Shown here: in pieces, positions 2,960 through 8,326 of the stretch
Position numbering within the stretch: the first letter of the stretch is position 1
Layout: the number at the start of each line of letters is the position of its first letter
Source: Bacteroidota bacterium
Lineage (GTDB): Bacteria > Bacteroidota > Bacteroidia > B-17B0 > Aurantibacillaceae
Length of the DNA: 64,000 bases
NCBI GenBank assembly: GCA_019638705.1
Contig: JAHBTI010000018.1
Location: forward strand, 1 to 64,000
Direction: 5' to 3'
Made by a program: the position numbers and the translations under genes
Notes under the pieces: generated by a model
Database searches by the model: none
Told to the model about the DNA's origin: nothing
The model's input: only the letters and a program-made list of their open reading frames with translations

Positions 2960-3640
2960 TTATTTTACCCAACCTGCATACATGGCAATCGGCATAAGCG
3001 CGAAGATGAGCGGAACGATGATGGAGAACCATAAACCAAGTGCTTTAATAAGCGGCGTGTATTTTTTGTGATTTAAACCAAAGGTTTGGAAAGCCGACTG
3101 AAAACCGTGCATCAAGTGATAAGCCAAAGAAATCATTGCCAGCACATACACAATCACTACCCAAAGTTGAGAGAACGTAACTTGCATTACGGCATACAAA
3201 TCTTCGTGTCCGTTAGCGTCTTCGGTGGGAATGCCTGTGAAGCGCGACACCACCCAAAAGTGCGCCAAGTGAATAATAAGAAACATTAAAATTAATGTTC
3301 CCAACAAACCCATAGAGCGGCTGTACCATTTTGAATTGGCTGCGCCGTTTGTGCTGTGATACGCCACAGGGCGGGCTTTTCTGTTCTCCAGCGTGAGAAC
3401 CAACGCTTGCACAATGTGTAAAATAATGCCTAAGAACAACACAATTTCCATAGCGCGGATAAGCCAGTTAGTTGCCATAAAATGCGCGCCGATGTTAAAC
3501 ATCAAGCCACCGTCATTAAAAAAAATGAAAGCGTTAAGAAAACAATGCACTACGAGGAATGAAATTAAAAACAAACCTGTGATGCCCATAATAAATTTTT
3601 TGCCGATTGAGGAAGATAAAAATCCTGCTTTTTTACTCAT
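2960..3640 (-). CDS. sdhC: succinate dehydrogenase cytochrome b subunit (membrane anchor)
   Basis: Single-polypeptide, five-helix di-haem cytochrome b anchor of complex II that reduces menaquinone. It has 226 residues from the ATG at 3640. Hydrophobic segments lie at about 20-45, 60-80, 110-135, 160-185 and 200-222, and histidines suited to haem binding occur in VVHCF, HIVQAL, HLAHFW and HLMHGF. A start at TTG 3667 would give nine more residues but lies inside the -7 promoter element TACATTTG (3665-3672), so the ATG at 3640 (MSKKAGFL) is preferred. First gene of sdhCAB. Confidence 0.95.
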   Translation of the reverse strand: MSKKAGFLSSSIGKKFIMGITGLFLISFLVVHCFLNAFIFFNDGGLMFNIGAHFMATNWLIRAMEIVLFLGIILHIVQALVLTLENRKARPVAYHSTNGAANSKWYSRSMGLLGTLILMFLIIHLAHFWVVSRFTGIPTEDANGHEDLYAVMQVTFSQLWVVIVYVLAMISLAYHLMHGFQSAFQTFGLNHKKYTPLIKALGLWFSIIVPLIFALMPIAMYAGWVK

Positions 3641-3664
3641 AACGTTTTGAAAAGATTGCGAGGG

Positions 3665-3672
3665 CAAATGTA
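3665..3672 (-). promoter_or_regulatory. -7 promoter element of the sdhCAB operon
   Basis: The minus strand reads TACATTTG, matching the Bacteroidota -7 consensus TAnnTTTG, with a TTG about 20 bases further upstream. The element overlaps a possible TTG start of sdhC and rules it out in favour of the ATG at 3640. Confidence 0.6.
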
Positions 3673-3827
3673 TTAAGCAAAACGTTTAGAAACAAGGAAT
3701 AGATTTAGCACAAGCAGAAAGCGATGAAACATACGCTTTTAAAAACGCTGAATTAGTAAGGGGTATAGGGGCAGGGGTTTTTATTTAGAATGGGTTTAAA
3801 TATATTTTGTTAAGGAGGGGTAAGGGC

Positions 3828-3855
3828 TTGTCAAAAACTGTTTGTCAAAAACTGT
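3828..3855. repeat. exact 14-base tandem duplication framed by an inverted repeat
   Basis: TTGTCAAAAACTGT occurs twice back to back (3828-3841, 3842-3855). The pair is framed by the inverted arms AAGGGCTT (3822-3829) and AAGCCCTT (3860-3867). It lies 56-83 bases before the preferred start of the restriction-modification gene, and the second copy supplies an in-frame TTG. It could be an operator, or a slippage site whose 14-base unit would shift the frame of an upstream start. Function is inferred only from position. Confidence 0.6.
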
Positions 3856-3910
3856 GGAAAAGCCCTTTAACTTTAGATTTACTTTTAAGCGTACCTTACA
3901 AATCAATTCA

Positions 3911-6900
3911 ATGAGCATACTCGCCATAAAACAATATCATACCGAAGTAGAAAAAATTGTTCGCTTTGGCGGAACAAAAAAAGAAACTGCCATTCGCAAT
4001 GCGTTTTATAATTTGTTGAATGAATATGCTAAAGCCAAAGGCTTGCTGCTAATTCCCGAAATTACAATTAAAACTGCCAAAGGCAATAATGTTGCGCCCG
4101 ACGGAACGCTCAAAGACAGTCTGCGTCAAGATTGGGGCTACTGGGAAAGCAAAGACGAAGCGGACGACATTAACGAAGAAATCCGCAAAAAATTTGCCAA
4201 AGGCTATCCGAAAGACAACATACTTTTTGAAGACAGCCAAACTGCAATTCTATATCAAAACGGAGCGGAAGTGCAGCGCGTGAAAATGCAAGAAGCCGAA
4301 AATCTCGATAGTCTCATTCGCGCGTTTATGGATTATGAGCGAGCCGAAGTAACAAACTTCCGCAAAGCGATTGAACTTTTTAAGCAAGACGTGCCGCAGG
4401 TAACCGACACACTGCGCGATTTGCTCATAAAACAAGAAAAGGAAAATAAAAAATTTGTGGAGGAGCGCGACAGTTTTTTGCAACTCTGTCAGGAAAGTAT
4501 CAACCCGAATGTAACGGCAAACGATGTGCGCGAAATGATTATTCAGCACATTTTAACCGAAGATATTTTCAATACCATTTTTGATGAAACGCAATTTCAC
4601 CGCGAAAACAACATTGCTCATCAGTTAGAAAAAGTGATTGAAACGTTTTTTACGGGAGGCGTAAAACGCACGGCTCTTGCCAAACTGAAAAGCTATTCGC
4701 AAACCATAAACGCAGCAGCAGCGAGCATTGCCGACCACCACGAAAAACAAAAATTTTTAAAAGTAGTTTACGAAACGTTTTATAAAAGCTATAACCCAAA
4801 AGCGGCAGACCGTTTGGGTGTGGTTTATACGCCAAACGAAATTGTGAAGTTTATGATTGAAAGCACCGACTATTTGCTTCATAAACATTTCGGCAAATAT
4901 ATGGAAGACAAAGGCGTTGAAATTCTTGACCCTGCAACAGGAACAGGAACTTTTGTGTGCGACATTATTGATTACATACGCAAAGAAAAACTCGCTTACA
5001 AATACCAACACGAAATATATGCCAACGAAGTGGCAATACTGCCGTATTATGTGAGCAACCTCAACATTGAGTTTACTTACAAACAAAAAATGGGCGAATA
5101 TGCCGAGTTTGAAAACCTTTGTTTCGTGGACACATTGGACAACATAAAAGGTTTAAATGAAATTGTTACAGGAAAATATAGTAAATACCAATCAACGGGT
5201 AATCTGTTTGGTAACATTTCGGAGGAAAACAGCCAACGGATTAAACGGCAGAATGAGCGTGACATAAGCGTTATTATTGGCAATCCGCCATACAACGCCA
5301 ACCAAGCCAACGAAAACGACAATAACAAAAACCGCGAATACAAAATAATTGACCAACGCATAAAAGATACGTTCATCAAAGCAAGCACAGCGCAAAAAAC
5401 AAAAGTCTATGATATGTATGCGCGCTTTTATCGTTGGGCGTTTGACAGATTAAATAAAAACGGCATTATAGCTTTTATTACCAATCGCAGTTTTATTGAC
5501 AGCCGAACGTTTGACGGTTTCAGGAAAGTGGTGGCAAGTGAGTTTAACCACATATACATTTTGGATTTAGGTGGTGATGTGCGAGCTAATCCCAAACTTT
5601 CGGGCACAAAGCACAATGTGTTTGGCATACAAACAGGGGTGGCTATTATGTTTTTGGTGCGTAAGAATAATATTATTGAGGTAGAAACGGAAAAGGAATA
5701 CAAGGCTGCGATAAGAGAATATAAAATTTCAGAAAGCAAATTGTCTGCTCTTGGCGAGCCTGTTGTAAAATATGGCGAAAAAGAATTTTTTAGCACTGAT
5801 TCGGTGCGCATTATGTACGCACGAAGACCTGAATTTGAAACTGCGCAAGAGAAAATTCATTTCTTAGGCACTACCAAATTTGAAAATGTTGATTTTGAAA
5901 AAATACAACCCGACAAAAACAACAACTGGATAAATTTAGCGGATAACGATTTTGAAACACTATTACCGTTGTGCAGCAAAGAAGTAAAGGCAGGAAAATA
6001 CGGAGGGGCTGTGTTTGAGTTGTTTTCTCTTGGTGTGGTTACTGCTCGTGATGAATGGGTTTATGATGAAAAAGAAAGTAACCTTGAAAAGAAAATAAAG
6101 TTTTTGATTGATGTTTATAACAAGGACGCCGCCAAACATAAGGGTAAAGAACAAAAAGAAATCAGAAATGTTATAAACTATTCCATTAAGTGGTCGCGTG
6201 CCGTAAAAAATGATTTAGCAAAAGGAATAAAATACAAGTATGACAAAAAACTGATTGTAGAAAGCTTGTATCGTCCTTTCGTGAAACGAAAATTGTATTT
6301 CAGTAAGCAGTTGAATGAAATGCAATATTTAATGCCTCAAATTTTTCCTGAAAAAAAGAGTTCAAATGTATTAATAGGATTTTTACAAGGCGAACGGCAA
6401 CCCTTTTCCACATTTTCTACTAACATTATATGTAACTACGCAATGTTTAGTGCGGATTATGCCCAATGCCTTCCTCTCTACCGCTACGGTGAAAACGGCA
6501 AACGTATTGAAAACATTACCGATTGGGGTTTGGAGCAGTTTCAAAGGCATTATAAAAATAAGAAGATAACTAAGGAGCAAATTTTTAGTTATGTGTATGC
6601 GGTGTTGCACAATCCTGCGTATCGCAAAAAGTATGCGTTAAATTTGAAGCGTGGGTTTCCGCGTATTCCGTTTTATGATGATTTTGGTAAATGGAGCGCG
6701 TTGGGCAAAAAGTTAATGGATTTGCACATTGGTTATGAAAATGTAAAACCGTTTCCATTGAAAGTTGAAAAATTGAAACCGGAGGGTGAACCAAAAGCAA
6801 AATTAAAAGCAGACAAAGAAAACGGTGAAATTATTTTAGATGAGATTACTGTATTGAGCAATATTCCTAAAGAAGCATGGGAATATAAATTGGGCAACCG

Positions 6901-7090
6901 CTCTGCTTTGGAATGGATACTTGACCAATACAAAGAAAAAAAGCCGAGCGCCCCAACCATTGCCGCGCAATTTAACACTTATAAATTTTCTGACTACAAA
7001 GATGAGGTCATTGAATTGCTGAAACGTGTTTGCACGGTAAGTGTAGAAACAATGAAAATTGTAACTCAAATGCAAAGTGAAAACGAGTAA
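3911..7090 (+). CDS. single-polypeptide restriction-modification enzyme (nuclease + N6-adenine methylase, type ISP C-terminus)
   Basis: Predicted to methylate adenine in a target site and cut unmethylated DNA. From the ATG at 3911 it has 1059 residues. The N-terminus carries a PD-(D/E)xK-like nuclease core (Pro63-Asp64, then Glu79-Ser80-Lys81). A helical linker follows, then the methylase with S-adenosylmethionine motif DPATGTGTF (about residue 338) and catalytic NPPY (about 457-460). The C-terminal 450 residues resemble the type ISP target-recognition/C-terminal region (e.g. LHNPAYRKKYALNL). I find no Walker A or DEAD-type helicase, which classical type ISP enzymes of about 1500 residues have, so it may work like a type IIG enzyme. 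A TTG start at 3842 would add 23 unconvincing residues. No separate specificity subunit or R gene lies beside it; it faces convergently into an unrelated operon, eight bases away. Confidence 0.85.
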   Translation: MSILAIKQYHTEVEKIVRFGGTKKETAIRNAFYNLLNEYAKAKGLLLIPEITIKTAKGNNVAPDGTLKDSLRQDWGYWESKDEADDINEEIRKKFAKGYPKDNILFEDSQTAILYQNGAEVQRVKMQEAENLDSLIRAFMDYERAEVTNFRKAIELFKQDVPQVTDTLRDLLIKQEKENKKFVEERDSFLQLCQESINPNVTANDVREMIIQHILTEDIFNTIFDETQFHRENNIAHQLEKVIETFFTGGVKRTALAKLKSYSQTINAAAASIADHHEKQKFLKVVYETFYKSYNPKAADRLGVVYTPNEIVKFMIESTDYLLHKHFGKYMEDKGVEILDPATGTGTFVCDIIDYIRKEKLAYKYQHEIYANEVAILPYYVSNLNIEFTYKQKMGEYAEFENLCFVDTLDNIKGLNEIVTGKYSKYQSTGNLFGNISEENSQRIKRQNERDISVIIGNPPYNANQANENDNNKNREYKIIDQRIKDTFIKASTAQKTKVYDMYARFYRWAFDRLNKNGIIAFITNRSFIDSRTFDGFRKVVASEFNHIYILDLGGDVRANPKLSGTKHNVFGIQTGVAIMFLVRKNNIIEVETEKEYKAAIREYKISESKLSALGEPVVKYGEKEFFSTDSVRIMYARRPEFETAQEKIHFLGTTKFENVDFEKIQPDKNNNWINLADNDFETLLPLCSKEVKAGKYGGAVFELFSLGVVTARDEWVYDEKESNLEKKIKFLIDVYNKDAAKHKGKEQKEIRNVINYSIKWSRAVKNDLAKGIKYKYDKKLIVESLYRPFVKRKLYFSKQLNEMQYLMPQIFPEKKSSNVLIGFLQGERQPFSTFSTNIICNYAMFSADYAQCLPLYRYGENGKRIENITDWGLEQFQRHYKNKKITKEQIFSYVYAVLHNPAYRKKYALNLKRGFPRIPFYDDFGKWSALGKKLMDLHIGYENVKPFPLKVEKLKPEGEPKAKLKADKENGEIILDEITVLSNIPKEAWEYKLGNRSALEWILDQYKEKKPSAPTIAAQFNTYKFSDYKDEVIELLKRVCTVSVETMKIVTQMQSENE

Positions 7091-7098
7091 TTTCGTTT

Positions 7099-7584
7099 TC
7101 AAAAAATCAAATAATTCTTACTCGCTAAATCATTCGGTTCTATGCTTTGCACCTGAATAATGTCGGGAATGGTTTTTATGCGTTCAATAATTTTGTGGGT
7201 GTAAGTGTAATATTCCTCGCCTTTCACTATTAAAAAATAATCGGTTTTCGGAAGTTCTTTAATTAAGCGCACACTTTCGTTTACATCAAGTCCTGCAAAT
7301 AAATCGTTATTTGCGTTTGTATTTGCATTTGGTTCTTCAAAATTGCTGGTGTTGGGTATCATAAAATATTCCAAATGCAGGGCTTCGTCAGAAAAACTGT
7401 AAAGAGAAAATTTAAACAGTTTTCCGCCTTTCAGCATAAATTCCTCGTAGCTGTTTAATGCCAAATTTATCTGCAACACATCGTTGAGTGCCGACACCAT
7501 AAAATATTGGTTTTCGGAGCAGGTAATGCCCAATAACGAAAAATCAAAATCATCTGCACCACTATGTAAAACGTGTTTAGCCAC
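7099..7584 (-). CDS. IPExxxVDY family protein
   Basis: A 161-residue protein of unknown biochemical role. It fits the Bacteroidota IPExxxVDY family by size and by its fixed place directly after rnc in the acpP-fabF-rnc cluster. The eponymous motif is poorly preserved; the best match is IPDIIQVQSI near the C-terminus. No signal peptide or membrane segment is visible, so it is probably cytoplasmic. Its first codons overlap the end of rnc by eight bases, implying translational coupling. The family call rests on synteny as much as on sequence. Confidence 0.7.
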   Translation of the reverse strand: MAKHVLHSGADDFDFSLLGITCSENQYFMVSALNDVLQINLALNSYEEFMLKGGKLFKFSLYSFSDEALHLEYFMIPNTSNFEEPNANTNANNDLFAGLDVNESVRLIKELPKTDYFLIVKGEEYYTYTHKIIERIKTIPDIIQVQSIEPNDLASKNYLIF

Positions 7585-8326
7585 TTTCTTGTTGCAATTC
7601 TTCTAAGGTAAGTTGCGCCGCTTTTTGTTCGGCTACGCGCTTGCTAAATGCTTCAAATTTGATGTAAGGTTTTTCGTTTACAAACACCTGCACGGTAAAC
7701 AATTTGTTTGTGCCTTGCCGCACTTCGTTCAGCAATTTATACTCTAAAGTAAACTTATGTTTCTGACAAAAAATTTGCAACTGGCTTTTGTAATCGTCGT
7801 TTGTGTTGGCTATTTCGTCCACATCCACATGAATTTTTATGATTTTAGAAATCACAAAAATTTTTGTTTTATTATATCCTTGGTCAATGTAAACCGCGCC
7901 AATAAAGGCTTCAAAGGCATCGCCAAAGGCACTTGATTTTGTTTTTTCAGAATGCGTAAGGCTTGTTTTTAAAAAATAATTGAACCCGAATTTTACAGCG
8001 AGTTCGCGCAAACTTTGCCCGTTTACAATGCGGCTGCGCAGTTGGGTTAAAAAACCCTCGTCTTTGTAAGGATAAATTTTAAATAAATAATCAGCAACAA
8101 TAGCACTGAGAACTGCATCGCCCAAATATTCCAAGCGTTCGTTGCTCACGGTAGTTCCACTGCGCTTCATAGCCACACTGCTGTGAAAAAATGCTTGTTG
8201 GTAAACAGAAATATTTTTTGGGGAATAGCCTGTGGTGGTTTTTACCCACATTTTAAACTCCTTATCGCGCTTCGCACTTTTGTTTGTGGTAGTGCTGATG
8301 AGCGATAATATTTTTTTCAGAGCCAA
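7577..8326 (-). CDS. rnc: ribonuclease III
   Basis: Double-strand-specific endoribonuclease for rRNA and mRNA processing. It has 249 residues. The catalytic signature ERLEYLGDAVL starts at residue 64 with the Mg2+-binding acidic residues, and the second acidic site lies in AFGDAFEAFIGAVYIDQGY. A double-stranded RNA-binding domain occupies about residues 178-246 (YKSQLQIFCQK..., ending in AEQKAAQLTLEEL). An N-terminal extension of about 25 residues is typical of Bacteroidota homologues. It follows fabF by 11 bases in the same operon. Confidence 0.95.
   Translation of the reverse strand: MALKKILSLISTTTNKSAKRDKEFKMWVKTTTGYSPKNISVYQQAFFHSSVAMKRSGTTVSNERLEYLGDAVLSAIVADYLFKIYPYKDEGFLTQLRSRIVNGQSLRELAVKFGFNYFLKTSLTHSEKTKSSAFGDAFEAFIGAVYIDQGYNKTKIFVISKIIKIHVDVDEIANTNDDYKSQLQIFCQKHKFTLEYKLLNEVRQGTNKLFTVQVFVNEKPYIKFEAFSKRVAEQKAAQLTLEELQQESG

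What the first reader, a model, noticed from the sequence alone, without database searches (positions are those of the whole stretch)
3911..7090. Restriction-modification in one protein: PD-ExK nuclease, N6-methylase and type ISP C-terminus without a helicase
Seen: PD...ESK at residues 63-81, DPATGTGTF and NPPY motifs, and ISP-like C-terminal blocks, but no Walker A or DExx box in 1059 residues. Known: type ISP enzymes (LlaGI, LlaBIII) cut after ATP-driven translocation. Inference: this enzyme should cut near its site without ATP, as type IIG enzymes do, or it may be a defence protein with a different trigger.
Basis: partly seen in the sequence, partly recalled or inferred. Interest (0 to 1): 0.55.

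Follow-up and report, generated by a model that had tools for sequence, protein, structure and literature searches.

The report
A DrdV-like one-protein restriction-modification enzyme
The gene makes one protein that both marks and cuts DNA, closely matching a bacterial restriction enzyme (DrdV) whose structure is already solved, so it is an ordinary member of a known kind.

Summary
Window 3911-7090 (+) encodes an intact 1059-residue protein: PD-ExK nuclease (1-148), helical coupler, N6-adenine methylase, and C-terminal specificity domain, with no helicase. It is a full-length homologue of DrdV (PDB 7LO5/7LVV; phmmer E = 0; Foldseek E = 2.7e-98 at 49% identity), a Type IIG/IIL enzyme with the same order of domains. 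The nuclease model matches DrdV residues 2-160 at Z 26.4, 1.2 A rmsd over 159 residues. D64, E79 and K81 are invariant in 65 of 65 aligned sequences, and NPPY in 65 of 65. Six helicase-bearing relatives form a separate clade. PADLOC already has a Type IIG model for it (E = 1.7e-295). Most likely it methylates one strand of an unknown asymmetric site and cuts a fixed distance away after several site-bound copies assemble, without ATP. Its site is unknown: residues 701-860 are the least conserved part. Verdict: new member of a known kind, low interest.

The parts
3911..7090 (+). Type IIG/IIL (DrdV-like) restriction-modification enzyme, 1059 aa, intact
3911..4354 (+). PD-ExK nuclease domain, residues 1-148 (D64, E79, K81)
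   Evidence: AlphaFold model pLDDT 90.8; DrdV residues 2-160 at Z 26.4, rmsd 1.2 A, 159 aligned; motif invariant in 65 of 65
4355..4738 (+). helical coupler, about residues 149-276 (Pfam stretch 157-275)
   Evidence: PF22240 E 3.9e-14
4739..5665 (+). N6-adenine methylase, about residues 277-585; DPATGTGTF 340-348 and NPPY 458-461
   Evidence: PF02384 and PF07669; NPPY in 65 of 65
6011..7018 (+). C-terminal specificity domain (Type_ISP_C), residues 701-1036; residues 701-860 are variable and probably read the target
   Evidence: PF18135 E 2.5e-99; mean identity 37.1% at 701-860 against 71.9% in the methylase

Best explanation
A single-chain Type IIG (also called IIL) restriction-modification enzyme of the DrdV kind. 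The C-terminal domain and methylase bind a short asymmetric DNA site; the methylase puts a methyl group on the N6 of one adenine on one strand, slowly; if several unmethylated sites are bound at once, the monomers gather so that two nuclease domains meet on one duplex and cut it a fixed distance downstream. No ATP or translocation is needed. Shown here: domain order, intact catalytic motifs, the nuclease fold, absence of a helicase, full-length homology to DrdV. Inferred from DrdV: one-strand methylation, the assembly of several bound copies, the short fixed cutting distance, ATP independence. Unknown: the target sequence.
For: Best PDB sequence match over the whole length is 7lo5/7lvv, 716 and 404 bits, E = 0; 7LO5 is named as DrdV in a figure legend of PMC11842806 (passage read) and in the Foldseek table. 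Foldseek ranks 1-6 are DrdV chains, E 2.7e-98 to 3.1e-90, 49% identity. The nuclease profile finds DrdV alone below E 0.4 (1.8e-61; the next match 0.47). Nuclease domain 55% identical to DrdV over 153 residues without gaps. Catalytic residues invariant in 65 of 65. PADLOC REase_MTase_IIG E 1.7e-295. DrdV biochemistry as told in PMC10201449 (passages read): site CATGNAC, cuts 10 and 8 bases downstream, tetrameric assembly, slow methylation against fast cleavage. DrdV listed as 6mA, IIG, CATGNAC in PMC6430315 (passage read).
Against: No biochemical or methylome data for this protein. The whole-chain model superposes on DrdV with a large rmsd (7.3-8.4 A), so the relative domain placement is not settled. 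Residues 418-436 and 463-473 are of low confidence. The primary DrdV structure paper is not held under the DOI I tried, so the mechanism rests on later papers' accounts.
Confidence: 0.93

Rival explanations
1. A Type ISP enzyme that lost its helicase recently and is now only a methylase with a leftover nuclease.
For: PF18135 and PF22240 are shared with Type ISP enzymes; public records label helicase-less relatives 'type ISP restriction/modification enzyme'.
Against: The nuclease is of the DrdV type and not the Mrr type that Pfam finds in 4 of 4 helicase-bearing relatives scanned. The 6 helicase-bearing proteins form one clade with support 1.000 and a long branch, apart from this protein. 64 of 64 aligned relatives from other genomes keep the nuclease residues D, E and K.
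Confidence: 0.03
2. An orphan methylase in practice: the nuclease is present but inactive in this strain.
For: No activity data exist for this protein; it is a lone copy in its genome.
Against: D64, E79 and K81 are all present; no stop or frameshift.
Confidence: 0.03
3. A defence protein with another trigger, for instance like the methylase of the MADS system.
For: PADLOC mads_2 matches residues 22-559 at 2.9e-33.
Against: That match is far weaker than the Type IIG model (1.7e-295), and no evident partner genes stand beside it: the neighbours are read as sdhC, a small protein gene, rnc and fabF.
Confidence: 0.01

Closest known systems
DrdV (Deinococcus wulumuqiensis 479; PDB 7LO5, 7LVV), Type IIG/IIL
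   Same: Same domains in the same order over the whole length, no helicase, same PDG...YWESKDEAD motif, 49% identity in the structural alignment.
   Different: Target unknown here; 30 residues longer (1059 against 1029 aa); the C-terminal half scores lower against DrdV than the N-terminal half (404 against 716 bits).
LlaGI and LlaBIII, Type ISP
   Same: Coupler, methylase and C-terminal specificity domain are homologous.
   Different: They carry an Mrr nuclease and an SF2 helicase motor, and cut after ATP-driven translocation (abstract of PMC4666363; passages of PMC4872093); here the helicase is absent and the nuclease is another kind.
MmeI, Type IIL prototype
   Same: Single chain with endonuclease and methyltransferase (passages).
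   Different: No MmeI sequence was compared here and no MmeI chain is among the rows shown; DrdV is the close relative.

Membership tests
Type IIG/IIL (DrdV-like) | Nuclease, methylase and specificity domain in one chain, in that order | tested here: met
Type IIG/IIL (DrdV-like) | PD-ExK nuclease with intact active residues | tested here: met
Type IIG/IIL (DrdV-like) | No helicase motor | tested here: met
   no helicase family at E <= 1; 149 residues before the coupler against 705-740 in helicase-bearing relatives
Type IIG/IIL (DrdV-like) | Cuts at a fixed distance from its site without ATP | not testable with these tools
   needs purified enzyme
Type IIG/IIL (DrdV-like) | m6A on one strand of an asymmetric site | not testable with these tools
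   needs a methylome; NPPY motif present
Type ISP | SF2 helicase-like ATPase between nuclease and coupler | tested here: not met
   ResIII and Helicase_C found in 4 of 4 helicase-bearing relatives scanned as a positive control
Type ISP | Mrr-family nuclease | tested here: not met
   no Mrr family at E <= 1, while Mrr_cat_2 is found in 4 of 4 Type ISP relatives scanned; the nuclease profile finds DrdV only below E 0.4
Type ISP | Type_ISP_C specificity domain | tested here: met
   PF18135 E 2.5e-99

The most novel reading that the evidence does not exclude
The enzyme reads a target sequence not yet assigned to any restriction enzyme, because its recognition stretch (residues 701-860) is the most diverged part of the protein.
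Probability: 0.5. Interest if true: 0.2.

Novelty: new member of a known kind. Interest (0 to 1): 0.1.

Why it matters
It adds one intact, widely related member to the DrdV kind and shows that the public label 'type ISP' is given to proteins without the motor that defines Type ISP. Its practical use would be as a possible new cutting specificity. It opens no new question of mechanism.

Tried and rejected
Type ISP membership was tested and rejected: helicase and Mrr nuclease are both missing. The letters DEAD at residues 82-85 were considered as a helicase box and rejected, as they follow the nuclease's ESK and DExH/D is not conserved among helicase-less relatives.

No structured RNA reached a family's gathering score at 3400-7700. 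Direct and inverted repeats around the gene were short two- or three-copy matches with no sign of terminal repeats of a mobile element. Copies of DrdV's motif CATGNAC in the window (7 and 13 on the two strands) say nothing about this enzyme's own site. Of 50,697 phage records, 5 hold a match and 2 a match over at least 80% of the protein; those 2 are Listeria records that align only from residue 151. Codon-position-3 GC of the gene (0.39) lies within the range of seven neighbours (0.38-0.49), so composition does not mark it as foreign.

The paper library has no copy under the DOI that I recalled for the DrdV structure paper; what is said of DrdV's mechanism comes from passages of PMC10201449, PMC11842806, PMC11997821 and PMC6430315.

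Full report
What is there. Window 3911-7090 (+) is an open frame of 1059 codons from ATG to stop. It is a single copy in its genome. Pfam gives coupler (PF22240), N6-methylase (PF02384, PF07669) and Type_ISP_C (PF18135) in order, and no helicase at E <= 1. The first 148 residues match no Pfam family in that scan but hold PD...ESK at 63-81.

What it is. The best solved-structure match by sequence is chain 7lo5_A, aligned from residue 1 to near the end in two stretches of 716 and 404 bits, E = 0; LlaGI and LlaBIII come next and align only from residue 149. 7LO5 is DrdV (figure legend of PMC11842806; title). An AlphaFold model from 65 sequences has mean pLDDT 83.4 and pTM 0.70; Foldseek puts six DrdV chains first (E 2.7e-98 to 3.1e-90, 49% identity), then LlaGI and LlaBIII (27-31%). 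The nuclease domain alone, modelled from 33 sequences (the window's and 32 of the 64 relatives), has pLDDT 90.8. It matches DrdV residues 2-160 at Z 26.4, rmsd 1.2 A, 159 residues aligned, and next BpuSI, another Type IIG enzyme, at Z 11.6, rmsd 3.2 A, 130 aligned. PADLOC's best model is REase_MTase_IIG, E 1.7e-295.

Relatives. A scan of genome contigs gave 174 relatives of 189 candidate stretches; 80 were kept. I aligned 64 of those 80 with the window protein; the other 16 I left out by hand because they were split, partial, or close to one already chosen. D64, E79 and K81 are invariant in 65 of 65, P63 in 64, S80 in 62, and NPPY in 65. Mean identity to the window protein is 55.5% in the nuclease, 71.9% in the methylase, 37.1% at 701-860 and 64.9% at 861-1059, as expected when the specificity part changes and the rest is kept.

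Helicase-bearing relatives. From plasmid records I fetched ten hits and used nine; L120 was dropped because no gene is annotated under the match and it came in two pieces. Six have 705-740 residues before the coupler and a DEAH box; eleven, the window protein among them, have 145-149. Pfam was run on four of the six and finds Mrr_cat_2, ResIII and Helicase_C in 4 of 4; it was run on two others of the eleven, and on the window protein, and finds none of the three families. In a FastTree tree of the shared part (17 proteins) the six group with support 1.000 on a branch of 1.08. The tree is unrooted, so it does not say which architecture came first.

How it most likely works. As DrdV does (passages of PMC10201449): a monomer binds an asymmetric site, methylation of single sites is slow, and cleavage is fast once several bound copies assemble and two nuclease domains meet downstream of a target. 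For this protein that is inference from homology; the anatomy is shown.

Surroundings. Upstream on the other strand lie genes that I read as sdhC, sdhA and sdhB; Pfam gave no match for the sdhC product and the other two were not scanned, so those names are recalled. Downstream are a 161-aa protein gene without a Pfam match, rnc and fabF. In ten same-genus stretches taken beside sdhC the enzyme gene is absent (0 of 10); nine of the ten run 8.4-8.5 kb, one (L113) 3.6 kb. The sdhC gene and the 161-aa gene lie on one contig in 6 of the 9 relatives searched with both, 26-222 kb apart (26-46 kb in five of the six), against 3.4 kb here. So the enzyme sits where the local gene order differs from that of its relatives. 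The Type_ISP_C family occurs in 8 of 60 genomes searched, the window's own included; of the other seven, two (L086, L087) look DrdV-like at 49-60%, though the loci held do not reach their nuclease ends, and five align only from residue 287 at 24-28%.

Verdict. New member of a known kind; low interest.

Noticed in passing
window 3667-7099: The two genes that flank the enzyme lie 26-222 kb apart in the 6 of 9 same-genus genomes where both are on one contig, so the enzyme gene sits at a place where the gene order of this genome differs.
   Followed up: partly
L115, L116 (plasmid records): Helicase-less relatives are annotated in public records as 'type ISP restriction/modification enzyme', although the defining motor is absent.
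   Followed up: partly
L087 (genome G019, same genus): A DrdV-like relative interrupted by one TAG stop.
   Followed up: no
window 3828-3855: A perfect tandem pair of the 14-base unit TTGTCAAAAACTGT upstream of the gene; meaning unknown.
   Followed up: no
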